Assembly (NCBI GenBank): GCA_021199235.1
Contig: JAJQIL010000138.1
Span: forward strand, 1 to 64,000
Direction of reading: 5' to 3'
Origin: Lachnospiraceae bacterium
GTDB taxonomy: Bacteria > Bacillota > Clostridia > Lachnospirales > Lachnospiraceae
DNA length: 64,000 nucleotides
Shown: positions 16,025-33,312 of the stretch, in pieces
How the letters are laid out: each line of letters starts with the position of its first letter
Position numbering within the stretch: the stretch's first letter is position 1
Notes under the pieces: generated by a model
Databases searched by the model: none
What the model was told of the DNA's origin: nothing
What the model saw: the letters and a program-made list of their open reading frames with translations, nothing else
Program-made: the position numbers and the translations under genes

Positions 16025-16045
16025 CTCATTTTCTCCTTTGAAAAT

Positions 16046-16112
16046 ATTAACCTTCATTAACCCCATTAATGGTCATTAATCAACATTAACGATTGCAGAA
16101 AAATCCCATTAA
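16046..16112. promoter_or_regulatory. Helically phased ATTAA repeats upstream of NACHT gene
   Basis: ATTAA occurs at 16046, 16056, 16065, 16075, 16085 and 16108, mostly as CATTAA. The first five are spaced 10, 9, 10 and 10 bp, i.e. one helical turn. A possible minus-strand promoter overlaps them (TTGATT, 17 bp, TTAATG). The pattern suggests an operator bound cooperatively on one DNA face, or an intrinsically bent tract. Confidence 0.6.
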
Positions 16113-17136: not shown

Positions 17137-17143
17137 GGATATG

Positions 17144-17173
17144 GCTCCACCTGTCTTTCCGGGCAGGTGGAGC
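17144..17173. terminator. Terminator between the 234-aa gene and AIPR gene
   Basis: GCTCCACCTG (17144-17153) pairs with CAGGTGGAGC (17164-17173), followed on the plus strand by TTATATAATT. The genes on both sides converge here. Confidence 0.8.
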
Positions 17174-17196
17174 TTATATAATTAATCACCCCTACT

Positions 17197-18885
17197 TTAT
17201 AAAAACTCTGCTTTAAGGCTTTCTACAAGCGCAGCATTTTTAGTTGATTCTGTGCTATTAACATCTGCTACATATTTGTCTATCAGAGAAGTCAGCCTAT
17301 TCACTTCCTCTGTTAAACTCGCATTGTTTTTTGCAATCGCAAGTATCTTTTCACAGAAATTATCCATTTTGTTTGCATTCATTTCAGGAACTTTTTCTTC
17401 TGCCAAATCATACTTAATCATCATCAATATAAAAAATTTAAATTTTCTATACTGAGTTGGCAAAGCCTTATTCCTGAAAAGATATTCAAGCCTATATAAC
17501 ACAAACGCACTCGTATAATAAGGCAGATATTTGTGATTATCATTGAATATCCCATCAATTGACTTTAATAATCTTCCATAATATCTACTGGCCAGATGCG
17601 GTTTATCATAAAACATAGAGGCAACAGCTTTGATCTGCGTTCCTATCGAAACTATACGAACTTTCTCAATACTTGTTCCGTAATTGTATTGCTTCGATCT
17701 GCGTTCATAATAAAGGCGATCTGTACCAGAAAATGTTTCATAAAAGGCTTCCAATTTTCTATGAAACTCATTCAATGCAATAAGCTGTTCATCTGATACT
17801 TCCGTCTGACGATTGGTTGCTTTTATAATATTATTAACTGTATCATCATCGTCTGTCTCTATCAGCTTTATCGGCAATTGAGTCCCTTCACTAATATTAT
17901 CCTTATTATTAAATAACACATGGCTTGTTTGACATCCATTTACAATTTGATAATCGGTGAGTGTAAATTTATTTCCAACGTTCGTAAGATTTTTACAAAT
18001 AACAGTAACTCCGTTATTATACAGAACAAATTTATCTGAATCTGTTTGCAGAGTCTGTGCCATTTCATGGTTTACAGGGTTATCCCCCTGATAATCTCGA
18101 ACATTATCATAAAATACACTCTTGATTATTTCGCCATTCTCTCCTGTAATCAACTTCAAGTATGACTGATAGCTAATATATCCTAAATATGACTGTTTTA
18201 CTTTGTTTATCTCCGGCAGTAATACTTTATTGCTAAATTCTACTTCCTTCTCAATTACATCAATCGTATTCCGATAGTACTTCTGTAACAAATCCGCATC
18301 AACAGGAGTATAGATCACGTCACTAAAAAGATTTAAATTCATCAAATCATTTTTGGCAATCTCCATTCTTGCCACACAGTTTTGATCATCAACCCACTTC
18401 CCGGTTGTTATGTAGTATAAATAGCAGGTCGGTTTTCTTTTGATATAGGTTGCCCTTGAAAAAATATATTCTACAAGTTTACTTTTCTCCTTAACTGCGT
18501 CATTTCTGACCATTTGTGGACGATCCGAGAAGAAATCACGAACCCCGGAACCAAATGTTCCCATATCACCATAATCGAAATTAGACGAAGATTTAGCCTG
18601 CACAAATATAAAACTGATCTCTGACAATTTATTATTTATCTCCAACAGATCCTCTATTTCGTCAGAAGACGTTATCATCGTTCCGTTTGCAATTATTGCA
18701 ATGGCATCGATTCCACAATCTCCACCATCACCGATAACAATATCCTCTAAATTATAGCTTTCCGAATACAATTGTTCTACAGCGCAATAAGAAGCAAACA
18801 TTTCAAATTGTTTACTGGTATCTTTCTCTTCTATCTCTTGAGACTCCAAAAATGAAGTCACATAACTCTGTACAATTCTATCCAC
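17197..18885 (-). CDS. AIPR-family (abortive infection phage resistance) protein
   Basis: 562 aa. The C-terminal two thirds match the AIPR family: YNNGVTVICKN, then YQIVNGCQTSHVLF, then INATNRQTEVS-type segment. The N-terminus has a restriction-nuclease-like signature, GDGGDCGIDAIAI (D60) and FIFVQAKSSSN (Q96, K98), i.e. D...QxK of a PD-(D/E)XK fold. AIPR proteins are known from phage-resistance loci; target and mechanism are poorly known. The start is GTG at 18885 with GGAGG 10 nt upstream, 80 bp behind the DUF499 gene on the same strand, so it may be the last gene of the defence operon. AT-rich compared with its upstream neighbours. Confidence 0.85.
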   Translation of the reverse strand: MDRIVQSYVTSFLESQEIEEKDTSKQFEMFASYCAVEQLYSESYNLEDIVIGDGGDCGIDAIAIIANGTMITSSDEIEDLLEINNKLSEISFIFVQAKSSSNFDYGDMGTFGSGVRDFFSDRPQMVRNDAVKEKSKLVEYIFSRATYIKRKPTCYLYYITTGKWVDDQNCVARMEIAKNDLMNLNLFSDVIYTPVDADLLQKYYRNTIDVIEKEVEFSNKVLLPEINKVKQSYLGYISYQSYLKLITGENGEIIKSVFYDNVRDYQGDNPVNHEMAQTLQTDSDKFVLYNNGVTVICKNLTNVGNKFTLTDYQIVNGCQTSHVLFNNKDNISEGTQLPIKLIETDDDDTVNNIIKATNRQTEVSDEQLIALNEFHRKLEAFYETFSGTDRLYYERRSKQYNYGTSIEKVRIVSIGTQIKAVASMFYDKPHLASRYYGRLLKSIDGIFNDNHKYLPYYTSAFVLYRLEYLFRNKALPTQYRKFKFFILMMIKYDLAEEKVPEMNANKMDNFCEKILAIAKNNASLTEEVNRLTSLIDKYVADVNSTESTKNAALVESLKAEFL

Positions 18886-18965
18886 GTTTAGATTTCCTCC
18901 TCACTCAACTCCGGATCCCGATGAAATAATGCTAATATGAACTGTTTATGCAAAGCATTGTCCCA

Positions 18966-21900
18966 TCAATCCTCAAACCCAAAATCCGTGATCTTAAGCG
19001 TCCTGCAGTTCTCCGAAACTGTCCTCACTGTCGCAGACGGGATCCCCTTAGGTGCCGTAACTTCGACTTCCAGCTTCATCTCTACATCTGCGCCATCAAC
19101 CGTCGTCAGATGCTGAATAACTTCCTGCCAGTAGTTATAGATGTCCCGGCTCATCCGCGTATTATCCAACTTCACGGACATATAAAAATGCTTATTCTCC
19201 GGAGTATCCTCACTCTGACCTTCCCCTGAAGCGCCACCTGTGGCAGTCCCGCTTCCAGAACCGCCGTGTCCTGGATCCTCTGTATTCCCGCCTGGCACTG
19301 ACCAAGGATCATCCGAGCCACCGGATGCATTCTCCTCATCACGTTTTTTCTCTGCTTCTATTTGCTTTCTAGCCACTTCTGCTTTCACAAGCAAATCTGA
19401 CTGGTTGATGGAAAAGACTGTCTGGTTATATTTCAGATCCACATAGCGGTCATTCGAATATGCGGCCGCAAGTGCAAAATATTCTGTAGAAGCAATCCCC
19501 TGACAGATTGTCTCTTCCAACACCGAATAGCTGGACAGCCTCGGCAAATAACAGTATGTACTCAGATACTCCCAAAGTTTCTTTATGGAAATATCATTCG
19601 AATCCCTCCAGAGCAGATCATCCAGGCTCATCTGCAGCAAAGCCGGCGCCCACTTTGTAATGATCTGTTCCGCTTGCAGCATCTTACGCGCGGCTTTTGC
19701 CACAATACTGTCAGTGCCGCCTCCCAAATCGCTGATCTCCCACTGGATTGTCTTCATATCCTCATACTGGTCAATGAACGGAACCAGCAGCCAGCAATAC
19801 GTTTCTTTCAGCTGCGAATCTACCGTATTGTTGCTGCGCGTCAGATTATTATCAGTCTCCCGGATCTGCCCGCCATCCAGATTCAAATCATCTTTATCCG
19901 ACATGATGGAAGTCCACGCAAGGAACCGCTTTACTTCCTGTTCCAGGGAACCAATCTTATTAATATCCGGTGCCACAAATGCCAGCATGTTCCGATAAAT
20001 ACGCGGAGATGTCCCGCGGTTATTTAAAATATCTGTCACTCGTTCCATTGCTGCGCTCTTCGCGCTGTTTCTCTTATAGGTATCCTTTGAGCGGAGAATC
20101 ACAAGCCGCACAGCCTGATCATCCGGGACATCATTGGAAGATGCCGGACAGGGATGCACACCGGCAAACGGATTCTCTTTCCGGATCTTTTTCAGCCGGT
20201 TCTCAATCTCCATCTCCACATCCGCCTGGGAAATCTGTGACGCGCGGTCTTCCGCTGTCTTGCGAAGCGTCGGCTTCGTGTCATACCAGAAGCGGTTCCC
20301 GTTCGGATTATTATATAAATAAGACAGTGAGCCATGCAGCGTATTCAAGGCGTCCTTAAAATTCGCAATATTTTCCTCCGGCTGCACCGTGCCCAGCAGA
20401 ATACGTGAAATCTCCAGGCCGCGGATTCCCTGATCGCGAATGGCTGACGTGCTGGGTGCGCTCCCAAGCATAATCGTCCGTGCGATTCTTCTGGAAGCCA
20501 AAATATGGCCGTACCGAACCACAGCCTTATCCTTCTGATAGGGGATGGAATCCTTGCCGTCAACCTCTCTGTCAATAATGCTGTTCCATGTATCCGGCAG
20601 ATGACGCACCAGTTCATCCCGCACCGTCGGCACATCAAGCGGGATAGATCCCGGCATGATCATGGCACTCGCATCGTTCGCCATCCAGAGTTCATGAATG
20701 ACTGCTGCCATCAGACGAAGAACGCCGCGCGTCCTCTGGAAACGTTCCAGCGTTGCCCAGTCGCCATAAAGCCTGTCAAAAACCTCCGGATGGATCGGAT
20801 AGCAGGAAATCAAACGGTTCTTATATTCGACTTCCTTTGCTTCCAGCGGGAAATCCGTTTCATTTTCCTGGTACATCCTGCTGAATGCATCACAGACGGC
20901 CTCCCGTGCATCCGGATCCTTACAATCCAGGAACAGTCTGCGCCGGACAACCTCAAAACCTTCGTTCGCCGCCACCGGCTTCCAGATGGATTCCATACGT
21001 CCAAACGTATGCTCTATGGTATCCAGCACCGTTTTTCCCGCTTCTCCGCCAATCTCAATTTCAGATTCCGGGATAGAAGCCACCACGATGCTGTTTTCCG
21101 ATGCTCGCGCTGCCTCTGTAATCTCCTGAATAAAAGTGACAAAATTATCGTAAGATCCAGCCGGCAGTCCGTTCACGCCATAAATCTTCTTTGTATAAGC
21201 GACAAGCTCGTCCATCAGAATCAGGCACGGACCACATTCATTGAAGAGATTCTTCAAATTCTCCGAACCCGGAGATACGCCTTTCCTGTCCGCCTCGCGG
21301 ATATACTTTGCATAAAGTTCCGGTTTCTCAGCTGACGTAACGAGCTGATACGCCATCTCTCCCCAGATTGTGCTGACCGTGTAACCGGGAAGATTTGCCG
21401 GATTCTTTTTGCGGGTAGGATCCAGGGCCGTCCCTACCAAAACTGCCACATTAGCCTTCGGCAGTTCTTCCAGCCCCGCCCGCTCCAAAACCGGTTTCAG
21501 GCTCGGTATGTATTCAATCGAAGTCTTCCCATGAACCATATGGTAAAGCGCCAGCATACTATGTGTTTTGCCGCCGCCAAAAGCAGTCTTAAGCTGGATC
21601 ACAGGCTCTCCACCCTGTCCGGAAATACGCTGCAGAGACTCCACCAGAAGTCCTGCCATGCCCTCTGTCACATAAGTGCGTGCAAAAAACTCCACTGGAT
21701 CACGGTACTCATAGGCTCCTTCTCCTCGCGCCACCTGTGCCAGATCCGCTGCAAATTCCGCCGCGCGGTAACGCCCTTCCGCCACATCCGGATGGGGCTG
21801 CATCACGTCACGCCAGCTGGGCAGATTTTTTCCGACATTTCTGGTAAGAACAGCCGCGGATGCTTTTTTCTTTCCCGCCGGTGTCGGCGCCGTATTTTCT

Positions 21901-22364
21901 GTCACTGCCGTGGATCCCTGTTCCGAACCATACCGAGCCTTGCGGTACAAAGCACGGATTTCCTCCGTTGCCTCCGGATCAATCGACTCACAGAGAAGCG
22001 CCATGGTATCCAGTGCCCGCTCCGTGTAACCCTGCTGAAAATCATTCGCGCCAATGTGGGACGCGTCATTCCGCACACCCATCAACTCAGAAGCCCAGTT
22101 CCTGTGGCTCTTTGACATCTTCATACTGAAAACATCGCGCCATCTGCGGTCAATCAGCCGCAGGCAGTTGGCGATGTCCAGGGAATCCAGCAATTCCCCA
22201 TAATCACCGCTGTATGGCAGATCCCTCTGGTCACTTAACGCATCCAGAATTTCATTCCACCAGTCATCATGATAGACTCTTGACATCTCCTGTCCGATAT
22301 AAACCGCCAGCTGAGGGAGAAGAATCCGAAATCCTTTTTGGACAAGCTCATAATTTTCCTGCAT
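18966..22364 (-). CDS. DUF499 P-loop ATPase with N-terminal Swt1/HEPN-like domain
   Basis: 1132 aa from the ATG at 22364 (MQENYELVQKGF), which has GGAGG 8 nt upstream and lies 2 bp after the DUF1156 stop. Residues 1-130 look like a Swt1-type HEPN domain (RNDASH resembles the HEPN RxxxxH motif). The DUF499 core has Walker A GGGKTHS (263-269, K266) and Walker B CLILMDELVAYTKK. A Gly/Ser-rich linker (GGSDDPWSVPGGNTEDPGHG) leads to a C-terminal ~90-residue domain. DUF499 proteins recur beside DUF1156 methyltransferases in defence islands; the ATPase probably drives sensing or restriction. If the HEPN residues are active, RNA cleavage on infection is possible. This is inference. Confidence 0.85.
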   Translation of the reverse strand: MQENYELVQKGFRILLPQLAVYIGQEMSRVYHDDWWNEILDALSDQRDLPYSGDYGELLDSLDIANCLRLIDRRWRDVFSMKMSKSHRNWASELMGVRNDASHIGANDFQQGYTERALDTMALLCESIDPEATEEIRALYRKARYGSEQGSTAVTENTAPTPAGKKKASAAVLTRNVGKNLPSWRDVMQPHPDVAEGRYRAAEFAADLAQVARGEGAYEYRDPVEFFARTYVTEGMAGLLVESLQRISGQGGEPVIQLKTAFGGGKTHSMLALYHMVHGKTSIEYIPSLKPVLERAGLEELPKANVAVLVGTALDPTRKKNPANLPGYTVSTIWGEMAYQLVTSAEKPELYAKYIREADRKGVSPGSENLKNLFNECGPCLILMDELVAYTKKIYGVNGLPAGSYDNFVTFIQEITEAARASENSIVVASIPESEIEIGGEAGKTVLDTIEHTFGRMESIWKPVAANEGFEVVRRRLFLDCKDPDAREAVCDAFSRMYQENETDFPLEAKEVEYKNRLISCYPIHPEVFDRLYGDWATLERFQRTRGVLRLMAAVIHELWMANDASAMIMPGSIPLDVPTVRDELVRHLPDTWNSIIDREVDGKDSIPYQKDKAVVRYGHILASRRIARTIMLGSAPSTSAIRDQGIRGLEISRILLGTVQPEENIANFKDALNTLHGSLSYLYNNPNGNRFWYDTKPTLRKTAEDRASQISQADVEMEIENRLKKIRKENPFAGVHPCPASSNDVPDDQAVRLVILRSKDTYKRNSAKSAAMERVTDILNNRGTSPRIYRNMLAFVAPDINKIGSLEQEVKRFLAWTSIMSDKDDLNLDGGQIRETDNNLTRSNNTVDSQLKETYCWLLVPFIDQYEDMKTIQWEISDLGGGTDSIVAKAARKMLQAEQIITKWAPALLQMSLDDLLWRDSNDISIKKLWEYLSTYCYLPRLSSYSVLEETICQGIASTEYFALAAAYSNDRYVDLKYNQTVFSINQSDLLVKAEVARKQIEAEKKRDEENASGGSDDPWSVPGGNTEDPGHGGSGSGTATGGASGEGQSEDTPENKHFYMSVKLDNTRMSRDIYNYWQEVIQHLTTVDGADVEMKLEVEVTAPKGIPSATVRTVSENCRTLKITDFGFED

Positions 22365-22366
22365 CC

Positions 22367-24604
22367 TTATACCTCCTCGGTCTGCGCATCCGCAGCATGT
22401 ACATCTAAATAGTCCCTTATCTCCTGATGGATCAAACACAGCGCATCGTGAATGCTCATGTCCGAACCATCCGCATTGATTACCTTTTTGTATCCCGTAA
22501 ATATGGATAATCCGCTGCCCAGTCCTGCAATCGGCTTATCCTCATCCTCTATATCCTCCGAAAAAGAAATATCCAGCATGCCAGGCAGCTCCCGCTTCAT
22601 CGTATTGATGAAACCTCTGCGTGTCGCCCCTTGCGCATCTTCTTTCTTTTTCCGAAACACAACTGCAATTCTTACCGAATCAAATCGTGGATTCGCCTTT
22701 TCTGTCCGGACCGGCCACACACCCGTAACCATAAATCCTGCTTGGATCATGCTATCCAGCAACTGCTCAAACGGCGTCATTTTTTCCATTTTTCCATCGG
22801 AGCGAATGGCTTCCTCGTCCTGTTTGCTATATTCAAAAAACAAAACGGAAGGATATTCTTCAGCAGCCGCCTGGTGGAAGTTTTGCAGCATCCGCCTGAT
22901 CCCGTTTTGATATTCTCTGACTGCCTCTGCACTGTCTCCATCAAAGTGCTCCGGGATAGAAGAAAGTTCTTCCTTCGAAGTCACAACCTTCTCAAAAAGC
23001 TGCGGATAAACATTCTTTAAACATCTTCTCAACCAGATATAAAAATAATCAGACAGATCCGCATATCCCACGTTATCGTAATAAGGAAGCTCCGTAAACA
23101 AAACAGAATCTTTCGGGAATTCCATGGTCACTGCATTCGCCTGCTCCACTTTCGCAGGAACTGCCGCAGATAGTCCGGCAACCGACTCCACCACGTTCTG
23201 CAGCATGGTATTAAAATTTCCCGTGACAGTCGAAAATGGATTTCCTTCTCCAAAAACCCATGCCATCGGAATTGCCTGCCTGGTAAACGCCGCCCGAATA
23301 TTTCCTTTTCGATTATCCCATGTACAGATCGAAGACTGAAAATTTGCCAGTTTTCCAATCACAAGCGCAAGATAAACGCCAACCGCCTGGCCATATGCAT
23401 AGGCTCCTGTGCCTCCTTCCGACAACGGAACCTTATCCTCTGTCATTCCCGCTGCAATGGCATCTTCGGATACCTGTGACATAACCTCAGGAAGCAAATC
23501 ACACAGGGTTGTCATCAAAAGCAGCTGCCTCGGCGTATATAAATCTGTATATTCTGTCAGTCCAAATCCAGGCGGACTAAACCATCTGGTATTATTCGGG
23601 AGCGAACCAATCGGTAATTCATCCGGAAGTAATGTTTTAGCCGCATCCATCTGTCGCTGATCCGGCTCCACGTACATTCTTCCATCTTTCGTCTGCACGC
23701 ATACCGCCATCAGCTGGATCTCCAGCCCGCCTTCTTTCCCCGTTTTCTTTACAAATTCATCCTTTGTAATCTCGCCGCACACCGGACACTGAAATTTTGC
23801 CCCTGCACTCCCATGCTTATTTGTCTCTTTCTCCTTCGGGCAAATCCCCTGATGGATTTGAAACCGGATCTTTTTATCCAGGATCTCCGGTTCTGCCCAA
23901 TACTCATGCCCTGCTGTTTTCGACAAGACATAACTGCCCGCCAGAGGCATCCTGCAGCCACAGGCCGGATTCGGGCATTTCATCGTCCTCACCCAAATCC
24001 AGGCATAGGCCGGCGCTTCCTCTTTTGTTCCCGGTATCTGCACGGGCGGATACTCATCCTTCATCTTATATTCAACAGCATCCCGAAGCCATTTCCCATA
24101 ATGCGCGACATCCGCAGCCAGACCTTCCGCACCAAAGTAAAACTTATTCTCCGCATCCGGGTGAACCGCTTTTTCATTCAAAAACCGGGCAGGTATCTCC
24201 GCCGCTGCTTTTGTAAGCAGACAAGCCACTGCATTCAGATCTCCCGCCTGAACCTGAAGCCCAACCTTCTGCGCCGCAATCGTAAGGCCTCCAAAACCGG
24301 AAAATGGATCACACACAACCGGAGGCTTCTCCAGATTTTGGACGGCGGAAAGATTTCCCTTGCCTCCTGCAATCTGGCATAGTTCGGCGGATATTTGCTT
24401 TCTTTTCTCATCCTCCTCATCTGCCGGATCATCCAGAATATCCGCCGCCAATAAAGCCGCTGATGAATCTACAGGACTCCGGTTCCACCACAAGTGCATA
24501 TTGCCCGGATGTCCTTTATGCGCCTTATCTCCCATCGCAGAAACGCTTAGTGCCTTCAAAGGGAGCGCAGTTTCTATTATTTTTCTTTTTTTACTATAAC
24601 CCAT
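22367..24604 (-). CDS. DUF1156 DNA methyltransferase paralogue with altered catalytic motif (ELPY)
   Basis: 745 aa. The N-terminus has the DUF1156 signature (IETALPLKALS, HPGNMHLWWNRSP), followed by the SAM-binding motif DPFSGFGGLTIAA, two Cys clusters (CPNPACGCRMPLAG, CPVCGEI) and GTGAYAYGQAVGVYLAL. Motif IV, expected as DPPY, is ELPYYDN (E505-N511, bases 23072-23092). The paralogue at 26146-28929 keeps DPPYYDN. Loss of the Asp and first Pro would be expected to cripple adenine or cytosine N-methylation, so this subunit may recognise DNA or regulate rather than methylate. It overlaps the AlbA_2 gene by 28 bp and is 2 bp from DUF499, so the three are co-translated. Confidence 0.85.
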   Translation of the reverse strand: MGYSKKRKIIETALPLKALSVSAMGDKAHKGHPGNMHLWWNRSPVDSSAALLAADILDDPADEEDEKRKQISAELCQIAGGKGNLSAVQNLEKPPVVCDPFSGFGGLTIAAQKVGLQVQAGDLNAVACLLTKAAAEIPARFLNEKAVHPDAENKFYFGAEGLAADVAHYGKWLRDAVEYKMKDEYPPVQIPGTKEEAPAYAWIWVRTMKCPNPACGCRMPLAGSYVLSKTAGHEYWAEPEILDKKIRFQIHQGICPKEKETNKHGSAGAKFQCPVCGEITKDEFVKKTGKEGGLEIQLMAVCVQTKDGRMYVEPDQRQMDAAKTLLPDELPIGSLPNNTRWFSPPGFGLTEYTDLYTPRQLLLMTTLCDLLPEVMSQVSEDAIAAGMTEDKVPLSEGGTGAYAYGQAVGVYLALVIGKLANFQSSICTWDNRKGNIRAAFTRQAIPMAWVFGEGNPFSTVTGNFNTMLQNVVESVAGLSAAVPAKVEQANAVTMEFPKDSVLFTELPYYDNVGYADLSDYFYIWLRRCLKNVYPQLFEKVVTSKEELSSIPEHFDGDSAEAVREYQNGIRRMLQNFHQAAAEEYPSVLFFEYSKQDEEAIRSDGKMEKMTPFEQLLDSMIQAGFMVTGVWPVRTEKANPRFDSVRIAVVFRKKKEDAQGATRRGFINTMKRELPGMLDISFSEDIEDEDKPIAGLGSGLSIFTGYKKVINADGSDMSIHDALCLIHQEIRDYLDVHAADAQTEEV

Positions 24605-26001
24605 TTTCCCTTTTTCCTTGATCCCTCATGTACCACAATATTTTCTTTCTGAAATTTTGCCAATAGCCTCTTAACTGTTGCATCTGAAACACTCAGGGCT
24701 TCGCTATATTTTTTTCGTGTCCATTCCGGATGTTGATGAATAACAGCCAATAATTTTGACTGAATGTCCGCATTTTCATCAAACTCCCATTCGTTTATTG
24801 GGTCATTTATTGGGTCATTTATTGGGTCATTTATTGGGTCATCTGTTAATGTTGACGTTTCCCCACTATTTTTTTTCATTAACTGCAAATATAAATCACA
24901 GGCATTGCACAAAACCATGACTCCGCCTGAAAACTCATATTTCGGAAGTGGGCCGCCATACTCTTCGCAGCCTCTCCGGATCTTATCAAATCCGCGCCCC
25001 CACGCCTCAATCATTCCACTTTTGAAAAAGGTATTTGCCAGCTTCGGATTGTACGGTTTGGAAGAATGCTTCTCAAAAAGCTTTTCCGTAGAATCCAGTT
25101 CTTCCGGCATTTTTCCTTCATTCCAGATGTACATACGATCCTCGTAGACGCTGATCTGAATCGGATTGCAGCTCTCATATGCCTTATGGATGACGGCGTT
25201 AAGCAAAATTTCCCTGCAGGAATCCGGGTGAAAGAAGAATCTTTCTATACGCTGTATTCCCTGATAGGTAATCAGAGCCTTCATGTATTTTGTATAGATC
25301 AGATCCATCGTCTTATCAATTTGCTCAATCAAAGGCCCATGAATCTCATCCTGGTACAGTAAATCTGAATCAGATTCTCCAAAAAATCCAATCTTAATAT
25401 AAGCCCCGGTAATCCACCGTTCCGGATCCGGATAAAACGCAAGCGCCGCAGCCCTCGTCAAATATCCGTCATCGTCATACAAGCGCAGGTTTTCCATCAG
25501 CACCTGATCGGAAACCTTCGTTTCTTCCTCTGTGAGTCGTCCCCGCCCAATTGCCTTCTTTTTGAAAAGAGCAATCGCGCTCTGGCTCAAATCTTCCACT
25601 TTCAGCCTCGGAACCGGCATACCATCCCATGTCCTGCCCTGGGCACGAAGGATTGCCCGATCCAGTTCTTTGCCTGTAATCGTGCGCATCGTACTTCCGG
25701 AACGATAATAGTACACTCCGTGAAAACTGATCATCGTCGGATATTTGTCCACAACAATTTCAAGATAATCCAGCCCATCTTTGTTGCATAGATTCACATC
25801 GACAATAATCCCCATCGTGTCGGTCACCTGATTCGGAATCTTTTCTAACAATTTCTTCGCATTATTGATTCCTTTCAAGTTTCCACGATCATCTATTCCA
25901 ATATATAAGGTTCCCCCGCTTGCGTTGGCATAACCACAAATCCATTTTAAATAATCGTCCTGCCAGGACTCTTTCCATTCCACATTCTGACTTTCTGCCA
26001 T
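24577..26001 (-). CDS. Schlafen/AlbA_2-domain ATP-binding protein with winged-helix end
   Basis: 474 aa from the ATG at 26001 (MAESQNVEWKESW); a GTG at 26013 is possible. The AlbA_2/Schlafen-like domain covers residues ~8-120 (EWKESWQDDYLKWICGYANASGGTLYIGID). The middle matches the RecG-like/GHKL-like C-terminal ATP-binding half (CREILLNAVIHKAYE, IEAWGRGFDKIRRGCEEYG). Then come four tandem DPIN units and a winged helix (WTRKKYSEALSVSDATVKRLL). Such proteins are usually called transcriptional regulators, but AlbA_2 domains are also nucleases in defence. Its place inside the methyltransferase operon, overlapping the next gene by 28 bp, argues for a role in the same system. Confidence 0.85.
   Translation of the reverse strand: MAESQNVEWKESWQDDYLKWICGYANASGGTLYIGIDDRGNLKGINNAKKLLEKIPNQVTDTMGIIVDVNLCNKDGLDYLEIVVDKYPTMISFHGVYYYRSGSTMRTITGKELDRAILRAQGRTWDGMPVPRLKVEDLSQSAIALFKKKAIGRGRLTEEETKVSDQVLMENLRLYDDDGYLTRAAALAFYPDPERWITGAYIKIGFFGESDSDLLYQDEIHGPLIEQIDKTMDLIYTKYMKALITYQGIQRIERFFFHPDSCREILLNAVIHKAYESCNPIQISVYEDRMYIWNEGKMPEELDSTEKLFEKHSSKPYNPKLANTFFKSGMIEAWGRGFDKIRRGCEEYGGPLPKYEFSGGVMVLCNACDLYLQLMKKNSGETSTLTDDPINDPINDPINDPINEWEFDENADIQSKLLAVIHQHPEWTRKKYSEALSVSDATVKRLLAKFQKENIVVHEGSRKKGKWVIVKKEK
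24794..24841 (-). repeat. Four in-frame 12-bp tandem repeats in the AlbA_2 gene
   Basis: A TTTATTGGGTCA unit occurs four times without spacing and encodes (DPIN)n on the minus strand. It forms a flexible linker before the winged helix. Since the unit is a multiple of 3, copy number can vary without a frameshift. Confidence 0.9.
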
Positions 26002-26053
26002 CTGCTCAGCCACCTGCCTTTCTGATCATCATCTCCAACATATCACTTTAAAT

Positions 26054-26124
26054 ATCAAACGACTTTATGTCGTTTGATCGCGCCGACCGCGAAGCTGCAC
26101 AAGCAGCTATCCCTTGCGCGGTCG
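26054..26124. promoter_or_regulatory. Palindrome and nested hairpin between MTase A and AlbA_2 gene
   Basis: ATCAAACGAC (26054-26063) and GTCGTTTGAT (26069-26078) form a perfect palindrome with a 5-nt loop. Next to it CGACCGCG (26084-26091) pairs with CGCGGTCG (26117-26124), enclosing AGCTGC/GCAGCT (26093-26098, 26103-26108). The palindrome ends 53 bp before the AlbA_2 start and could be its operator; the nested stem may end or attenuate the methyltransferase transcript, though no clear U-tract follows. Confidence 0.6.
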
Positions 26125-26145
26125 TGTGCATCATTTTATCTTATG

Positions 26146-28929
26146 TCAGTCCGATTCCATCAGATCAAACAGACTCATCTGCTGCGGCACCTCTGCTTTC
26201 AGTTCCGCCGCCTTTGACTGAATATCCGGCCAGGAAACCACTAGCGCATTGTAAGCATAGGCTTCATTCGCCCACTTTTTCTGCTCTGCTATTGTATACA
26301 GACGGTAAGCAAGATCTTTTGCATACTCTGCGTTACTGCCAAACAAATCTGCCACAATTTTGGCACAGGCTTCTATTCCACCTTTTTCCATTGCGTACGT
26401 CAGCTGTTGTGTCAAAAGCCAAATATTTGCCTCGTTGTTATCAACCTTTTCCGGAAGGCCCTTTCTCTCCAACAAATGTACAATGCCCGCTTTCGCATAA
26501 AGCATTCCATGAGAGGCCATCATCGGGATAGATGTTCCTTTGGCGTTTGCTAGCACCTCCGCTTCTCCATATTTGATGTCATTATAAGCATATTGTGTAT
26601 AAAGGTCTACGCAGAAACGACTGGCTGCATCAATGTTTCCAACCTGCTCATTGAAATACAGGTCAATCTCTTCATTGATAATCTGCAATGCGCTACGCAC
26701 AGTCATTGGTGTACCGTCCGCTTCAAGGACGCGACGGTATTTTGAATATACAGCCATGCCAGGGCCAATCGCAGATTGAGCGAGGTCAACAGGAGCAATG
26801 TTACTCTCCTGAAGTTTTTTCAAGGCAGGACGTAATTCACGACGCAATGCAGCAATTAGGTTACGTCGAGTGGTCTGAGGAGCATCTTCCGAACGTTTTC
26901 GGCAAACAAGGACGATGGATGAGGCAAGAGCATTAGTTCCAAGCCCAACATTTCTTGCCGCTCTTTCAGTCCTCACTGGCCAAGTTCCTGTAATTGAAAA
27001 GCCTGCATTTATAATTGCGGAAAGCATTGTTTCCCATCCCGAAGATGCCGTACTTTTAGATTCATCATTAGTATCACTCTGCTTATACGCATAATAAATA
27101 GTAACAGGCATGTCTTCTCGTGCATACTTATATAATTGCCGACAACTTTCCAACATGCCATTTTCAAAAAAATGTTTTGCTTCTTCCGTGCTCCCTTCAT
27201 GACGAAATGGGGTTGCAATAAGTTCTTCTGTTTTTGGCACCAACATAGTTCCAAATAATTTCGGATAAATATCTTTCAATGACTGCCTTAACCATACATA
27301 AAAATAATCAGATAAATCTGCATATCCTATGTTGTCATAATAAGGCGGATCTGTTGAAATCATAATATTTCGAATACCGCAATCTTCTTGAGCATTAAAT
27401 TGAGAAACCTCAGATGCTTCCGATGCTGGTAATTCAACTAAACACTTTTCAATCCATTCTAACATGTTACTAAAACAACCTGACGAACCACTAAACGGAT
27501 TGGCTTCTGCAAAATCCCAAACCATTGGAATGGCTTGACGTCCAAAGGTATTCCTTAATCCATCCCTAGGCGGATTCCAAGAACAAATCGTTGACAGGTA
27601 ATCTGCCATTTTATCAATCGCAAATGATAAATAAACTCCCACAGCTTCACCGTATGCTCTTGCTCCTGTCCCACCTTCTGCAACGGAGAGATGATCATTT
27701 TTTAATCCAACGGCAACTGCATCTTTTTCTACTAATTTCTGCACATCAGATACGAGTGAACAAAATGTTGTTAAGGCGGTTAATTGTCTATTTGTAAAAA
27801 GTTTTTTATGCTGATCCATCCCATATGCTTGCACTCTAAATCCAAGTGCTTGTTGAGGAAGGTAACTTTGAGGCGCATCTGCCGGCTCCTCAACCTTCGC
27901 TGCCAAAACCTGTTCTTCCGAAGGTGAACAGTATACTCTACCTTTATCAGCCTCACCAACCACAGCCATCAAAGAGTATTTAATCCTATTTGACTTACCT
28001 TCGCTACGAATATAATCAAAAGAAATCGGTTCACCACAACGCAAACACTTTGCACCAGTTCTTTCAACTGTACCATCATTCTTCGAATTGACTTTTCCTT
28101 TTTTTACAGAAAAATCTGCCTTTCCACCCTCTTTATAATTACAATCAACATAATACTCAGCACCCTTTTTAGTAGATAACTTAAATGTTCTTGCCAAAGG
28201 GGCTTCACAAGCACACGCTGGATTCGGACATTTTACTGTCCGAGCCCAAATCCACGCAATTACTGTTGTTTCTCCGCCACCCTGTTCCCTCGGAACTTTT
28301 ACTTTCGGATACAGATGTCCGATGCGTTTGAAAGCTTCCTGTTTCATCCACTCCCCGTAATAGCGAACATCTTCAGCCAATCCCTGTGCCCGTTTCCATC
28401 CTTCGGTTGTACTCGAAACTCTTGCATCAGGATTCACAGGTGGCATTCCCGCAAAGCACGGTGGAATCTCTATCATTGCCTTATTAATCATCACTGCAAC
28501 CGGATTCAGGTCGTGGGCATGGGCTTTCAATCCCAGTCTCTGCGCCTCCAGAGGAATTGCACCACCACCGGCAAAAGGATCCAATAGTTCTGGCGGATTG
28601 CCATTAGTAGAACGCAAGATTTCATTCTTTGCAGCATTCAAGACTTCCTCATTATTGGAGTTTTCCCACACTACAAGGTCTTCCAGAATTTTGAACAATC
28701 GCTGTCTCTCGGTATTCTGTGCCTCCTCAGTCGGAAACTTTTCTGGATGAGAAGAGGGATCATCTACAAGGCTGGACCAGATCACTGCACGTGCCGTGGC
28801 AAGTGGTCGTCTTGCCCACCATAAATGAAGTGTGGACGGATGACCATGACGAATCGACTTTTCCCTTGCAGATTCTTCATTTATCTTTTCCAGTGGCAAT
28901 GCCACTTCAATCAATTTTTTGTTTGCCAT
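26146..28929 (-). CDS. DUF1156 DNA methyltransferase with intact DPPY motif
   Basis: 927 aa. DUF1156 N-terminus (IEVALPLEKINEESAREKS, HPSTLHLWWARRPLATARA), SAM motif I LLDPFAGGGAIPLEA, then VKCPNPACACEAPLA and CLRCGEPI cysteine clusters, and catalytic motif IV STDPPYYDN (D527-N533, bases 27331-27351) followed by IGYADLSDYFYVWLR. It should be an amino-methyltransferase on adenine or cytosine. The extra ~180 C-terminal residues, absent from the shorter paralogue, could be a target-recognition part. The ATG has GGAGAAGG upstream and lies 10 bp behind the helicase. The middle (about 27.0-28.3 kb) is visibly more AT-rich than either end, hinting at a mosaic gene. Confidence 0.88.
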   Translation of the reverse strand: MANKKLIEVALPLEKINEESAREKSIRHGHPSTLHLWWARRPLATARAVIWSSLVDDPSSHPEKFPTEEAQNTERQRLFKILEDLVVWENSNNEEVLNAAKNEILRSTNGNPPELLDPFAGGGAIPLEAQRLGLKAHAHDLNPVAVMINKAMIEIPPCFAGMPPVNPDARVSSTTEGWKRAQGLAEDVRYYGEWMKQEAFKRIGHLYPKVKVPREQGGGETTVIAWIWARTVKCPNPACACEAPLARTFKLSTKKGAEYYVDCNYKEGGKADFSVKKGKVNSKNDGTVERTGAKCLRCGEPISFDYIRSEGKSNRIKYSLMAVVGEADKGRVYCSPSEEQVLAAKVEEPADAPQSYLPQQALGFRVQAYGMDQHKKLFTNRQLTALTTFCSLVSDVQKLVEKDAVAVGLKNDHLSVAEGGTGARAYGEAVGVYLSFAIDKMADYLSTICSWNPPRDGLRNTFGRQAIPMVWDFAEANPFSGSSGCFSNMLEWIEKCLVELPASEASEVSQFNAQEDCGIRNIMISTDPPYYDNIGYADLSDYFYVWLRQSLKDIYPKLFGTMLVPKTEELIATPFRHEGSTEEAKHFFENGMLESCRQLYKYAREDMPVTIYYAYKQSDTNDESKSTASSGWETMLSAIINAGFSITGTWPVRTERAARNVGLGTNALASSIVLVCRKRSEDAPQTTRRNLIAALRRELRPALKKLQESNIAPVDLAQSAIGPGMAVYSKYRRVLEADGTPMTVRSALQIINEEIDLYFNEQVGNIDAASRFCVDLYTQYAYNDIKYGEAEVLANAKGTSIPMMASHGMLYAKAGIVHLLERKGLPEKVDNNEANIWLLTQQLTYAMEKGGIEACAKIVADLFGSNAEYAKDLAYRLYTIAEQKKWANEAYAYNALVVSWPDIQSKAAELKAEVPQQMSLFDLMESD

Positions 28930-28939
28930 ATCCTTCTCC

Positions 28940-31900
28940 TCATTTCTGATACAGGACTTCTGATTCTGCGATCAAATCCTGTATATCGTAATTTACACTG
29001 GTCGCCGTAAAGTCTGGTGCATTCTTAAACGGCTGTTTCAGATAAATCGTGTGTGTATCACTACCATCCACTTCCACGATCGCCAGGATGAATTCATCCG
29101 GTTTATTGAGTGCCGTCAGGATCTCGTTTTTACTGACAGTGACTGTAGTGGAGCCTTTCGCTCGTCCTTTCACTTCGATAAACCGCAATGCGTTCGCATA
29201 TGCAGCCATGCGCTTCCTCATCCCTTCCGGAACATAAGATTCCACATCATAGCCACACTTCGATGCGCTCACATCCGTCGGCCGGTATCCCAGCGATGTC
29301 TCAATCTGGATGACCGCATTCATGGCTGCGTACTCAACACTCTGCCTGTCTCCATGTCCGAAGAGATCTCCGGATGAAGTCGCGGTCAGCTTATGAATCA
29401 ATCCTCTCGGAATCACCAGTGCTCCACCCGTAATTATCGGCGGCATTGGTGAAATCCTGCGTTCCTTCTCGATTTCCGCCAGGCGGCTCTGCATCCGGTT
29501 TTCCAGTTCCTCCGCCCGCCTTGCTGCCAGCTTTGAATTTAACCTGGAATTTGGTTTCCCTGCGGCTTCCTTTTGCGAAAGGTCTGCAGCACGATAGTCC
29601 CAGTATTGGATCTCCGCTGTCAGACGATCCTTGACAGCTTTTTCTGTCTTATCCAGCATCGCTTCCTTACGGTTTTTTACCTCCGCAAAGTGTTCGGGAA
29701 TCAATTGCTGGATCGCATAGCCCTTTGCAATTCCTTCCACATCCTTACACAACCAGTCCTGTGATTTCATCCAGTCATGAACCGCTTTGTACTCTTCATC
29801 CGTCGCTGCCCGATAATCCAGATACGGCGCATACCCGGCGCCTGATGCTGTTCCGTCTTTTTTTATCTCCACAAAATGAACATGTTTGGAAATCGTCCTC
29901 CGTGTTCCATCCTTTAACGTCACTCCATCCTGAACCGCATCCTCTATGTAGAAAAGGAGCCTTGCCTCCTCACTGAAATCACTGTCATCAATAAACACTG
30001 CGCCGCGCTTCATAACATCTACATTCTTTTCCCGGATCAGGTCAATTGTCGCCTCCAGAAGCGGATACCCCGGGCAGATCAGTTCCGCCTGTGCCTGTCC
30101 CGGAATCACACAGTATTCTTTGTCAAAGCAGACTCTTTCGTACCGTTTTAAAACAGGCTCTCCATAGCCAATCTGCATATCCCGGTTGCGCACTGCATAC
30201 GGGACGGATGTGATCTGATATCGTCCGGTTTCCTTCTTACGAATCTTTCCTCCAAGTGACTGGAAGGCTTCCAGGAAAAATGATTCAATAAAATGCGGCT
30301 GCAGCTTATGTGCTTCGATGCGCTCCATATCTTCGCGGATCGCATTGACGGAATGAACATCCATCACATCATCCGTCAAGGCCTGTTCTTTGATCAGCTC
30401 CTTAAATTTATCCGGGTTCATGGAGTGATCCACGACCTGGTTCAGCCTTGCGCGTACTTCCGGATCGTTCCCGTACCGCACAGCCTCGATCAGCAGATCC
30501 CGTAGGGATTTATTTTCAAAGGACATTTTCCCAAGGATGTCAAAAACCTTGCCGCCCAGGGCTTGTCGTTCTTCTTCCAACTTCGCAAACAATCTCTGGA
30601 AAACAAAGCCTTCTCTGGTTTCAGACGCCACCAGGTTCCACAGATGGCACACTTCTGTCTGCCCGATACGATGGATACGGCCAAATCTCTGCTCCAAACG
30701 GTTCGGATTCCACGGAAGATCATAATTGATCATCAGATGCGCCCGCTGCAGGTTGACGCCTTCTCCCGCGGCATCCGTGGCAATCAGGATCCGGACTCCC
30801 ACATCCTGTTTGAACAGTTCTTCTACCTTTCGTCTCTCATCCCGGAGCATTCCTCCATGAATGGTCACAACTGCCTCGTCATTTCCGAGCAAAGACCGTA
30901 TCTTACCCGCCAGATAATTTAGTGTATCTTTATGTTCGGTAAAAATGATCAGCTTCTCCCTCTGACCGTCTTCTCCAAACATTGCCCCCCTATCCTGAAG
31001 CAGCCTGGACAGCTCATCCCACTTTCGATCCACACCGCTCGCCCGGACATCATTCGCCATATTTTCCAGACGTTTCAGTGTCCGGATCTCCGCTTCCAGT
31101 TCCGCGATCGTAGCCGCCGCAGATGCATGATCCACGACCTGCTCTTCCATCTGCTCCTGCTCCTCTGCTGGCAGGTCATCCTCATCCATGTCATCCCATT
31201 CGGAATTCCGATATTCCGCAGCTCTCTTTCCCAGCCGTTCCTCAGCCAGCCTGTGCTCCAGGCGTTCGCGCCTGCGGCGAAGTGACTGATAAATAGCTTC
31301 CGGAGAGGACGCCAGACGGCGCTGCAGAATCGTCAGCGCAAATCCGACTGTATTTTTACGTTCATTATTCAGATTATCCGCGCGGTTAAACTCTTCCTGC
31401 ACATACTCTGTCACAGCCTGGTAAAGCTTCGACTCCTGTGGAGAAAGACTGTAATTTACCGTATAGGCTATGCGCTCCGGGAACAGAGGCTTGCCATCAA
31501 ATTTCAACAGTTCTTCTTTTACCAGATGGCGCATCACATCGCTGACATCTACTGCCTGCTGCGATGAATGATGCGTTCCTTCAAAACGATCCGGATCTAC
31601 CAGCGACAAAAACAGATGGAAATCCTCTTCTTTTCCATTATGCGGCGTTGCAGTCAGAAGCAAAAAGTTCCTTGTAATATTCGATAACAGCCGTCCCAAC
31701 TGAAAGCGTCTGGTATATTTGACTTCTCCGCCCCATACCGTCGCGGACATTTTATGCGCCTCATCCACAACGATCAGATCCCACTCGGAGACCTTCAGCT
31801 TCTCCTGCAGTTCATCATTCCTGGCCAGCTTGTCCAACCGACAGATACAGCGATCCACTTCCGTAAAAATATTTCCGGTCACAGCGGACTCCATCCGATC

Positions 31901-32452
31901 ATTGGTCAGAATCTCAAATTTCAGATGGAACTTTGAAAAAAGCTCATCCTGCCACTGCTCCGCCAGACTTCCTGGTGAGACAATCAGACATCTTTTCAGA
32001 TCACCCCTGGCTATCAATTCCTTAATGTACAGGCCGGTCATAATCGTTTTTCCTGCACCCGGATCATCCGCCAGCACATAGCGCAGCGGCACCCTCGGCA
32101 GCATCTCCTGATAAACTGCGGAAATCTGATGCGGGAGCGGCTCCACAGCCGATGTATGCACAGCCAGATACGGATCAAACAAATGAGCCAGGCTGATACG
32201 GTATGCCTCCGATGCTAGCTTCATCTGTTCTGCGTCCGCATCGAAGCTCCAGGGCAGATGCTTCGACAGCACTTCAAGTCCCGGCTCGCTCTCCCTGTAT
32301 AGCAGCTGCGTTCCCGGAACTCCCCGCGTATCTTTATATGTAATTTCCAGCACATTGCTGCCATACCACTGAACCGCAACAATGCTGACCGGCTCATTGC
32401 CCACAATGCCCTTCACTGTACTTCCGACAGTGATATCCTCTAATTTGTTCAT
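28940..32452 (-). CDS. SNF2-type helicase with C-terminal DUF3883 domain
   Basis: 1170 aa from the ATG at 32452 (MNKLEDITVGSTVKG). Helicase motifs: Walker A DPGAGKT (130-136, K135), VVDEAHKMS, LLTATPHNG, ATDAAGEGVNLQ and QRFGRIHRIGQ. A long charged coiled-coil-like insertion lies between the RecA lobes (MEEQVVDHASAAATIAELE). The C-terminal ~130 residues are DUF3883-like, with RFIEVKGRAKG holding an E-x-K that resembles a nuclease-fold core. Helicases of this layout accompany DUF1156/DUF499 genes in defence islands, as translocases in restriction-type systems. A TTG 27 nt upstream of the chosen start is an alternative. The gene is followed by MTase A after 10 bp. Confidence 0.88.
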   Translation of the reverse strand: MNKLEDITVGSTVKGIVGNEPVSIVAVQWYGSNVLEITYKDTRGVPGTQLLYRESEPGLEVLSKHLPWSFDADAEQMKLASEAYRISLAHLFDPYLAVHTSAVEPLPHQISAVYQEMLPRVPLRYVLADDPGAGKTIMTGLYIKELIARGDLKRCLIVSPGSLAEQWQDELFSKFHLKFEILTNDRMESAVTGNIFTEVDRCICRLDKLARNDELQEKLKVSEWDLIVVDEAHKMSATVWGGEVKYTRRFQLGRLLSNITRNFLLLTATPHNGKEEDFHLFLSLVDPDRFEGTHHSSQQAVDVSDVMRHLVKEELLKFDGKPLFPERIAYTVNYSLSPQESKLYQAVTEYVQEEFNRADNLNNERKNTVGFALTILQRRLASSPEAIYQSLRRRRERLEHRLAEERLGKRAAEYRNSEWDDMDEDDLPAEEQEQMEEQVVDHASAAATIAELEAEIRTLKRLENMANDVRASGVDRKWDELSRLLQDRGAMFGEDGQREKLIIFTEHKDTLNYLAGKIRSLLGNDEAVVTIHGGMLRDERRKVEELFKQDVGVRILIATDAAGEGVNLQRAHLMINYDLPWNPNRLEQRFGRIHRIGQTEVCHLWNLVASETREGFVFQRLFAKLEEERQALGGKVFDILGKMSFENKSLRDLLIEAVRYGNDPEVRARLNQVVDHSMNPDKFKELIKEQALTDDVMDVHSVNAIREDMERIEAHKLQPHFIESFFLEAFQSLGGKIRKKETGRYQITSVPYAVRNRDMQIGYGEPVLKRYERVCFDKEYCVIPGQAQAELICPGYPLLEATIDLIREKNVDVMKRGAVFIDDSDFSEEARLLFYIEDAVQDGVTLKDGTRRTISKHVHFVEIKKDGTASGAGYAPYLDYRAATDEEYKAVHDWMKSQDWLCKDVEGIAKGYAIQQLIPEHFAEVKNRKEAMLDKTEKAVKDRLTAEIQYWDYRAADLSQKEAAGKPNSRLNSKLAARRAEELENRMQSRLAEIEKERRISPMPPIITGGALVIPRGLIHKLTATSSGDLFGHGDRQSVEYAAMNAVIQIETSLGYRPTDVSASKCGYDVESYVPEGMRKRMAAYANALRFIEVKGRAKGSTTVTVSKNEILTALNKPDEFILAIVEVDGSDTHTIYLKQPFKNAPDFTATSVNYDIQDLIAESEVLYQK

Positions 32453-32521
32453 TTTCAGCAATCGCTCCCAGTTTGTCAACTTATCCTTATATTAGCATAA
32501 CGGATGTCCCATAAAACGGAC

Positions 32522-32710
32522 TCAGATTGCGCTCTTTCCGCTTTTTATCCACTCATCCAGCTCCGACCTTTTAAATTTCCACAGCTTTCCAACCTTATGC
32601 GCCGGAATATCCGTTTTCTTTATCCAGTTTCGCACTGTATCTTTTGTAACACCCATATATGCAGCGGCTTCTTCCAGATTAATCCAGTTGTCCTGATACA
32701 CTTCGCTCAT
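32522..32710 (-). CDS. Excisionase/MerR-like HTH protein, 62 aa
   Basis: A complete excisionase-family DNA-binding domain: WINLEEAAAYMGVTKDTVRNWIKK (winged HTH) followed by IPAHKVGKLWKFKRSELDEWI. The family includes excisionases and small regulators. It has its own promoter (32753-32782) and lies 69 bp upstream of the helicase, so it could regulate the defence operon, or be the Xis of the mobile element. Operon context favours the former; proximity to the element edge leaves the latter open. No integrase gene was found in the window. Confidence 0.85.
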   Translation of the reverse strand: MSEVYQDNWINLEEAAAYMGVTKDTVRNWIKKTDIPAHKVGKLWKFKRSELDEWIKSGKSAI

Positions 32711-32752
32711 ATTTCCGTCTCCTTAAAAAATTTCAACGTGCCACTAACCTAC

Positions 32753-32782
32753 ACTATACCAGACATGGATTCCTTTCGTCAA
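32753..32782 (-). promoter_or_regulatory. Promoter of the HTH gene and probably the defence operon
   Basis: On the minus strand TTGACG (32777-32782) and TATAGT (32753-32758) are 18 bp apart, 43 bp before the HTH start codon. No stronger promoter was seen between the HTH gene and the helicase, so this may drive the whole operon. Confidence 0.7.
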
Positions 32783-32825
32783 CTTGTTTTCCTATGATTT
32801 GATGGTAATTTGGGTTGATTTTCAT

Positions 32826-32856
32826 AATTGTTTTGTTGCATTTCAACAAAACAATT
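32826..32856. repeat. Perfect 13-bp palindrome upstream of the HTH gene
   Basis: AATTGTTTTGTTG (32826-32838) and CAACAAAACAATT (32844-32856), loop CATTT. It lies about 45 bp upstream of the -35 of the HTH promoter. No GC-rich stem is present, so an operator is more likely than a terminator; a recombination site is another option. Confidence 0.6.
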
Positions 32857-32935: not shown

Positions 32936-32940
32936 GCTCC

Positions 32941-33312
32941 TTATTCCTGTATTCTCTTTCCGCTGCCGCGTCTGCCGTTCATCTGATACCTGTCATGCTT
33001 GCGGATGCTCCTTATCGCCTGCCGCAGGGTATTGCTCCGTCCATGCTGATGATAGGGATGGGAAGCCTTGTGTTTATGAAATATCACGCAGCTTCCCGGC
33101 AGCGGATACTCCGGAGCGTCAGCCAAACGCGAAGCGTTTTTAAAATGGCTGACGCGACCTGCCGCCGAACGGATGTGAGGGGGCGTTTCCACATTATGGA
33201 TATACCACACATGCCCCGTGTTCTTTGACATTACCGTAACGTCATAATCATCCACATGGATGATGGCGAAATAATCCGGATCCAGGCATTGTAAATCTTC
33301 CTTATGAAACAT
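32941..33312 (-). CDS. Conserved-looking small protein after ParB, 123 aa
   Basis: The ATG at 33312 overlaps the ParB end by 11 bp, with GAGAGGG upstream, so it is co-translated with ParB. The N-terminus has an acidic beta-like part (CLDPDYFAIIHVDDYDVTVMSKNTGHVWYIHN); the rest is rich in His, Arg and Lys (FHKHKASHPYHQHGRSNTLRQAI) and ends in a basic tail. I do not know the family. Its place suggests a role in maintenance or transfer of the mobile element. The His-rich basic tail could bind nucleic acid. Confidence 0.7.
   Translation of the reverse strand: MFHKEDLQCLDPDYFAIIHVDDYDVTVMSKNTGHVWYIHNVETPPHIRSAAGRVSHFKNASRLADAPEYPLPGSCVIFHKHKASHPYHQHGRSNTLRQAIRSIRKHDRYQMNGRRGSGKRIQE

What the first reader, a model, noticed from the sequence alone, without database searches (positions are those of the whole stretch)
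17197..32710. Seven-gene candidate defence system with two DUF1156 methyltransferases
Seen: same-strand genes in order HTH, SNF2/DUF3883 helicase, DUF1156 MTase A, AlbA_2/Schlafen protein, DUF1156 MTase B, DUF499 ATPase, AIPR protein, mostly with gaps below 80 bp or overlaps. Known: DUF1156, DUF499 and DUF3883 helicases recur in defence islands as modification-type systems; AIPR is a phage-resistance family. Inferred: MTase A plus helicase plus DUF499 form the core, while the second methyltransferase, AlbA_2 and AIPR are additional parts. I know of no named system with this exact set; it lacks the hallmark genes of DISARM (drmA, drmB) and BREX (pglZ, brxC).
Basis: partly seen in the sequence, partly recalled or inferred. 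Interest (0 to 1): 0.88.

Follow-up and report, generated by a model that had tools for sequence, protein, structure and literature searches.

The report
Defence operon with a dead methyltransferase
This is a known kind of bacterial anti-phage gene cluster (Hma) in an unusual version that also keeps a second, apparently non-working copy of its DNA-methylating enzyme, probably as a helper subunit, with other defence genes swapped in and out around it.

Summary
The genes are there as described, but the core is not unnamed. PADLOC models identify helicase, methyltransferase (MTase) A and DUF499 ATPase as HmaA, HmaB and HmaC: the Hma system of 2021, reclassified in 2026 as Type-1 BREX-related. HEPN and helicase-nuclease motifs are intact. 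What appears new is MTase B: not a second working methyltransferase but a conserved, catalytically degenerate HmaB paralogue. In all six B proteins with the motif visible, DPPY has become ELPY (5) or TLPY (1); 32 of 32 other DUF1156 MTases aligned keep DPPY. B lacks the C-terminal 165 residues yet is under purifying selection (dN/dS 0.12-0.17). Its recognition-domain equivalent is its best conserved part, the reverse of A and of single HmaBs, without overlap. B forms one clade and branches like A when the recognition region is left out. Best reading: a non-catalytic partner of A. Schlafen and AIPR are exchangeable cassettes. Carrier: apparently a polA/parAB prophage family. Few B proteins are known, and no dimer, methylation or phage assay exists.

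The parts
32753..32782 (-). Promoter-like TTGACG-18-TATAGT with TG before the second hexamer, ahead of the HTH gene
   Evidence: 10 of 12 matches, one of four such on the - strand and the only one with TG; the total of promoter-like sites is at chance level
32826..32856 (.). Perfect 13-bp inverted repeat (5-base spacer) upstream of the promoter; possible operator
   Evidence: Read from the sequence; function inferred
32522..32710 (-). Small HTH_17 protein, 62 aa, likely regulator; not found in the other dual loci
28940..32452 (-). HmaA: SNF2 helicase with C-terminal NOV_C nuclease domain, GYD and EVK residues present
26146..28929 (-). HmaB (MTase A), 927 aa, intact motif I and DPPYY
27337..27354 (-). 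Codons of TDPPYY (motif IV) in MTase A, residues 526-531
26014..26145 (-). A-Schlafen gap with an approx. 80-bp hairpin-rich insert not present in L010
24577..26013 (-). Schlafen AlbA_2 + HATPase_c_4 protein, 478 aa; cassette in the A-B slot
22367..24604 (-). MTase B: degenerate HmaB paralogue, 745 aa, without A's C-terminal 165 aa
23078..23095 (-). Codons of TELPYY in MTase B (residues 504-509), in place of TDPPYY
18966..22364 (-). HmaC: HEPN_Swt1-DUF499 ATPase; HEPN Rx4H, Walker A and B present
17197..18885 (-). AIPR/AbiU-type protein, 34.1% GC; exchangeable downstream cassette, not core
13475..16066 (-). Neighbouring NACHT-SNaCT14 protein (separate gene of the same island)
33302..35054 (-). 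ParB and ParA of the carrier element

Best explanation
The locus is a Type-1 BREX-related/Hma system of a distinct two-HmaB subtype. HmaA (helicase-nuclease), HmaB-A (active N6-adenine MTase, carrying sequence specificity in a fast-changing target recognition domain, TRD), HmaB-B and HEPN-DUF499 work together. B is a pseudo-methyltransferase: it keeps the fold, most of the SAM-site signature and a strongly constrained central domain but lost the catalytic D and P of DPPY. I propose that it replaces one protomer of an HmaB dimer: A recognises and methylates, B is an invariant DNA- and ATPase-facing partner that couples the MTase to DUF499 and helicase. That is the division of labour of the two Mod subunits of EcoP15I, but with two specialised genes. 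Unmodified phage DNA would be attacked by the helicase-nuclease; HEPN and, when present, Schlafen or AIPR would be backup effectors. Shown: gene identities, motif loss, constraint, similar branching order, cassette exchange. Inferred: dimer, docking, defence.
Against: Only six B proteins, three of them near copies. L011's B also departs at motif I (DPFSSFGG). B_L065 is a long branch, so the deep end of the clade may be an artefact. The first tree, with all columns, puts the A proteins of L012 and L049 together (92) and does not hold A_L065 with them. SH-aLRT support only, no bootstrap. The pairs are not independent. The window-L010 difference in A is not confined to the TRD: A's N-part is 93% aa but 82% nt identical. 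In L010 the ORF before A is not the helicase. Models are mediocre (mean pLDDT 71.4 and 73.8; B residues 1-92 and 508-518, among others, under 50). No complex was modelled. The subtype is rare in the sampled genomes.
Confidence: 0.55

Rival explanations
1. B is a modification reader or brake: it binds the target without methylating it and licenses or restrains HmaC and HmaA, rather than forming the MTase dimer.
For: SAM-site signature largely kept while DPPY is lost; most constrained region is the TRD-equivalent; B is 2 bp from DUF499.
Against: No reader pocket shown; the similar branching of A and B suits direct partnership equally well.
Confidence: 0.22
2. B is an active methyltransferase with an atypical motif IV and adds a second specificity.
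For: Motif I D-P-F..G and PYY kept; MTase fold.
Against: D and P of DPPY replaced in 6 of 6, present in 32 of 32 others; TRD not diversifying as in active enzymes; 43 of 211 near-invariant HmaB columns lost in all B.
Confidence: 0.12
3. B is a decaying duplicate without function.
For: Truncated, fast-evolving, motif lost.
Against: Purifying selection in three close pairs, long open frame in all six, same L-P-Y-Y across 37-96% identity.
Confidence: 0.04
4. All seven genes, including HTH, Schlafen and AIPR, are one obligate system.
For: Same strand, short gaps.
Against: AIPR replaced in L010 and absent in L011 at the same slot; Schlafen absent between A and B in L012 and L065, and replaced there by QatABCD + HEC-02 in G725, whose Schlafen relative (38%) lies after DUF499; AIPR GC 34.1% against 51.3% for DUF499.
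Confidence: 0.07

Closest known systems
Hma (helicase-methylase-ATPase), PADLOC 2021, PMC8565338
   Same: HmaA, HmaB, HmaC present in order, models matched over nearly their whole length
   Different: A second, degenerate HmaB between HmaB and HmaC; cassettes between core genes
Type-1 BREX-related (BR) systems, PMC12839542
   Same: HEPN-fused DUF499, DUF1156 N6-MTase, SNF2 helicase with C-terminal REase; Schlafen genes linked
   Different: No second or inactive MTase met in the passages and term look-ups made; supplements not read
EcoP15I Mod2Res1 (Type III R-M), PMC4490356
   Same: Works-like analogy: one Mod subunit recognises, the other methylates
   Different: There two copies of one gene product, beta-class; here two diverged genes with the TRD before motif IV; not claimed as a member
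METTL3-METTL14 (recalled)
   Same: Active plus inactive MTase pair, EPPL in place of DPPW
   Different: Eukaryotic RNA enzyme; analogy only

Membership tests
Hma / Type-1 BR | HmaA SNF2 helicase | tested here: met
   PDLC00659, 1673.3 bits over 10-1174
Hma / Type-1 BR | HmaB DUF1156 N6-MTase with DPPY | tested here: met
   MTase A: PDLC00660, 1155 bits, DPPYY
Hma / Type-1 BR | HmaC DUF499 ATPase | tested here: met
   PDLC00662, 1055.8 bits; Walker motifs
Hma / Type-1 BR | C-terminal nuclease on helicase | tested here: met
   NOV_C 9e-20; GYD in 11 and GWD in 1 of 12 helicases, EVK in 12 of 12; motif meaning recalled
Hma / Type-1 BR | Phage defence | not testable with these tools
   No assay
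HmaB family, applied to protein B | Homology to HmaB | tested here: met
   PDLC00661, 579.7 bits
HmaB family, applied to protein B | Catalytic motif IV DPPY | tested here: not met
   ELPY in window; 6 of 6 B lack DPPY
HmaB family, applied to protein B | C-terminal region of about 165 aa | tested here: not met
   B ends where A has reached about residue 762 of 927
BREX | pglZ and brxC in the locus | tested here: not met
   8 proteins scanned: no PglZ hit listed, BrxC only 17 bits on DUF499; for the helicase 25 of 57 PADLOC families were shown
DISARM | drmA and drmB in the locus | tested here: not met
   8 proteins scanned: none is best matched by DrmA or DrmB; the helicase scores HmaA far above DrmD and DrmA, 25 of its 57 families shown

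The most novel reading that the evidence does not exclude
A lineage of Hma systems has evolved an obligate two-gene DNA methyltransferase, one catalytic and specificity-bearing, one conserved dead subunit: a bacterial DNA counterpart of METTL3-METTL14. By fixing the interface in the dead subunit it lets the active one swap specificity freely, while the gap between the two genes accepts whole defence systems (Schlafen, Qat, HEC-02).
Probability: 0.4. Interest if true: 0.75.

Novelty: new variant of a known kind. Interest (0 to 1): 0.6.

Why it matters
How Hma/BR systems couple modification to restriction is, as far as I know, not worked out. A conserved dead MTase subunit is a natural separation-of-function experiment: it makes testable whether the MTase works as a dimer, which subunit talks to the ATPase, and whether non-catalytic MTase folds act as sensors in phage defence. 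It also warns annotation pipelines that count two HmaBs as two methyltransferases.

Tried and rejected
Unknown system: rejected, the core is Hma. B as a second specificity or a pseudogene: see rivals. AIPR as core: rejected. ORF 12857-13468 as a gene: rejected, it overlaps polA on the other strand and matches all 80 polA loci. Two apparent double DUF1156 loci (L159, L175) were checked and are one gene each in two pieces: A residues 3-599 and 599-924, and 4-752 and 777-922. Scans that gave nothing or little: viral contigs with alignment A1 and with a TELPYY pattern gave no relative; an LPYYD pattern gave only the L065 contig, P0007 likewise. Phage records: 5 with a match, none covering 80% of B. 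Plasmids: 168 records with a match, of which the 40 best were listed; 1 of 40 had two places and its annotated neighbourhood shows one DUF1156 gene. PDB sequence searches: no relative of A or DUF499 at E 0.1; the profile gave only weak hits, best 0.026 to a tRNA MTase. Fold search in 'pdb' was not run because the machine was busy; DNA MTases do not appear among the 50 rows shown by VIA-align, which excludes nothing. dN/dS failed or was saturated for more distant pairs and is not used; one search also used a wrong DUF499 start for the window, corrected.

Rows dropped: the 31-row tree left out nine of the 38 sequences (L026, L035-L042, as short or distant) and added two of L065. and 114 further set aside six distant singles (L029-L034). 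In one search, 'near-invariant' allows one exception among 19. Papers: PMC12839542 seen as passages, section 29, part 1 of section 35 and part 3 of the references; PMC8565338 passages; PMC4490356 abstract and section 8; the Halomonas helicase paper (Liu 2024) only as a reference title, not held. 'Not in print' rests on searches and term look-ups; one search held 741 papers of which 20 were listed, none of these 20 with an inactive-methyltransferase term, so it is inconclusive; preprints and supplements were not seen.
Full report
What is there. The seven genes exist at 17197-32710 on the - strand, in the order given. HTH 32522-32710; helicase 28940-32452; MTase A 26146-28929; Schlafen/AlbA_2 24577-26013; MTase B 22367-24604; DUF499 18966-22364; AIPR 17197-18885. 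One of four 10-of-12 promoter-like matches on the - strand, the only one with TG before the second hexamer, precedes the HTH gene, with a perfect 13-bp inverted repeat upstream. Promoter matches overall are no more frequent than in shuffles (27 against 28.3), so this is a weak hint of one transcription unit.

The core is known. PADLOC models match over nearly their whole length: HmaA 1673 bits, HmaB 1155, HmaC 1056. Hma was defined in PMC8565338 as a three-gene operon, 1,638 instances. PMC12839542 reclassifies it as Type-1 BREX-related: DUF499 ATPase often with N-terminal HEPN, DUF1156 N6-MTase, SNF2 helicase usually with C-terminal nuclease. These features are met: HEPN_Swt1 with Rx4H, present in 6 of 6 dual and 8 of 10 single DUF499 proteins compared, and Walker A and B in 16 of 16; NOV_C with GYD in 11 and GWD in 1 of 12 helicases and EVK in 12 of 12. 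The meaning of these motifs is recalled. The paper also reports Schlafen RNases linked to BREX and BR loci in at least 1,017 taxa.

The second DUF1156 protein. B is a HmaB homologue (580 bits) of 745 aa, 36-38% identical to the window's A, lacking A's C-terminal 165 residues. At motif IV A reads TDPPYY, B TELPYY. A scan of the species-genome collection (84,980 species) with B gave four relatives: L010, L011, L012 and the fragment L013 (this kind of scan finds close relatives only). The genus search with DUF499 gave matches in 5 of 47 genomes: the window's own, G703 (a contig of the same length as L010's, with the same matches, counted once), G725, and two fragments. IMG/VR gave one more, L065. 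Motif IV is visible in six B proteins: TELPYY in window, L010, L011, L012, G725/L049; TTLPYY in L065. Of 33 other DUF1156 MTases aligned, the four A proteins included, one lacks the region and 32 of 32 read DPPY. In a DUF499-led scan of IMG/VR, 36 loci were found; a DUF1156 ORF is visible in 22, and 1 of 22 is dual (the L065 contig, seen before); DPPY was read in 21 of the 22, the 22nd (L166) being a fragment without the region (the contigs of L065-L067 are among them).

B is maintained, but under a different constraint. dN/dS is 0.12-0.14 for window/L010, 0.12-0.13 for window/L011 and 0.17 for L010/L011. Of 211 columns near-invariant in 19 DPPY-type HmaBs (14 single, 5 A) within B's span, B proteins all keep 82 and all lose 43; kept are D-P-F..G of motif I, the D-x-N acid and PYY, lost are D and P of DPPY and several residues of the later NALASSIVLVC stretch. 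L011's B also has S in place of a motif I glycine. Identity in the TRD region divided by identity in the flanks is 0.57-0.82 for 91 pairs of single HmaBs, 0.55-0.81 for 10 pairs of A, and 1.03-1.32 for 15 pairs of B. So A's TRD diversifies as expected of a specificity domain, while in B the same region is the best kept. Between window and L010, A's middle is 54% aa and 61% nt identical, its N-part 93% and 82%, its C-part 96.5% and 90%; B's middle is 98% and 98%, DUF499 96.7% aa. So a different A allele sits beside nearly the same B and ATPase; its divergence at DNA level is not confined to the TRD. The pairs share branches and are not independent.

History. With all columns, the six B form one clade (ultrafast bootstrap 100). 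With TRD and motif IV removed, B is one side of a branch (SH-aLRT 96) and A is one side of a branch (99), and both branch as L065, then L049, then L012, then window/L010. Against this: B_L065 is a very long branch, the program warns that such joins may be false, and the all-column tree orders the A proteins differently (window with L010, L012 with L049, A_L065 weakly placed). The DUF499 proteins of dual loci group together (100) with L155, whose upstream part is off its contig; the helicases of window, L012 and L065 group at 89. This fits one duplication followed by loss of catalysis before the split of these loci.

Cassettes. The A-B gap holds Schlafen in window and L010, nothing in L012 and L065, and in G725 a complete QatABCD plus HEC-02AB, with a Schlafen relative (38%) after DUF499. 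The helicase stands directly before A in window, L012, G725 (79% identical) and L065. In L010 the 389 bases before A encode no part of it but an open frame that looks EVE-like by eye; the contig ends there, so the helicase of that locus was not seen. After DUF499, the window has AIPR; L010 has another 689-aa protein there while flanking DNA is 95.8% and 88.5% identical on either side; L011 has neither AIPR nor the next gene there. AIPR was found in 0 of 5 other dual loci (only 0.8 kb is held after DUF499 in L012). AIPR is 34.1% GC against 51.3% for DUF499. The HTH gene is not found in the other dual loci at E 1e-5. Inserts between core genes also occur in ordinary Hma loci on plasmids, so the slot is not unique to this subtype.

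Carrier. Window 1-13.4 kb is phage-like (small terminase, D5 primase, DUF2800, ssDNA-binding, polA). The IMG/VR contig L089 has the same backbone: SNF2, D5, DUF2800, ssDNA-binding and polA at 72-89% identity, then NACHT (30%), ParB (55%) and ParA (71%), without Hma. L072 has helicase-A-B-DUF499-g267-NACHT-polA. Hma thus appears to be cargo in the polA-parB interval of a prophage family; integration ends were not determined.

How common. Matches at the stated E-values: family 1 of 299 and 1 of 397, order 3 of 392, class 2 of 391, phylum 60 of 398 (samples overlap and each includes the window's own genome). The two other genomes of the order and the other one of the class carry DPPY HmaBs. No further dual locus was recognised, but of the phylum's 60 genomes only loci of the best 30 matches were inspected.

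Mechanism. Established knowledge: amino-MTases of this kind use [DN]PP[YFW] to hold the target base (recalled); in EcoP15I one Mod subunit recognises and the other methylates (PMC4490356). I infer that A and B form such a pair, with B as fixed partner of A and of the neighbouring HmaC. Steps shown: gene content, motif loss, constraint pattern, similar branching. Steps inferred: dimer, docking, methylation by A, restriction by HmaA, backup RNase action by HEPN and Schlafen.

Novelty. No text mentioning a second or inactive HmaB was met in the searches and look-ups named under Tried and rejected; supplements and preprints were not seen. I rate it a new variant of a known kind.

Noticed in passing
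window 13475-16066: NACHT-SNaCT14 protein whose gene ends next to polA; in L010 its homologue matches in two overlapping pieces in different frames
   Followed up: partly
L049 3065-9434: Complete QatABCD and HEC-02AB nested between MTase A and MTase B
   Followed up: yes
window 1-13417: Phage-like replication module (C5 MTase, small terminase, SNF2, D5 primase, DUF2800, ssDNA-binding, polA); polA has 332 IMG/VR matches
   Followed up: partly
L010 1-389: Open frame before MTase A in place of the helicase, EVE-like by eye; EVE domains are reported beside DUF499 systems
   Followed up: partly
window 35051-35311: SymE-like toxin gene between ParA and an RNA m5U methyltransferase (35514-37178), a possible element border
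   Followed up: no
window 26014-26145: Hairpin-rich insert of about 80 bp in the A-Schlafen gap, absent in L010
   Followed up: partly
L010 10386-12455: 689-aa protein without Pfam or PADLOC hit in the AIPR slot; looks like a GHKL ATPase by eye
   Followed up: partly
window 16000-33500: Terminator-like hairpins are more frequent than in shuffles (27 against mean 14.8, sd 4.8), mostly inside genes
   Followed up: no
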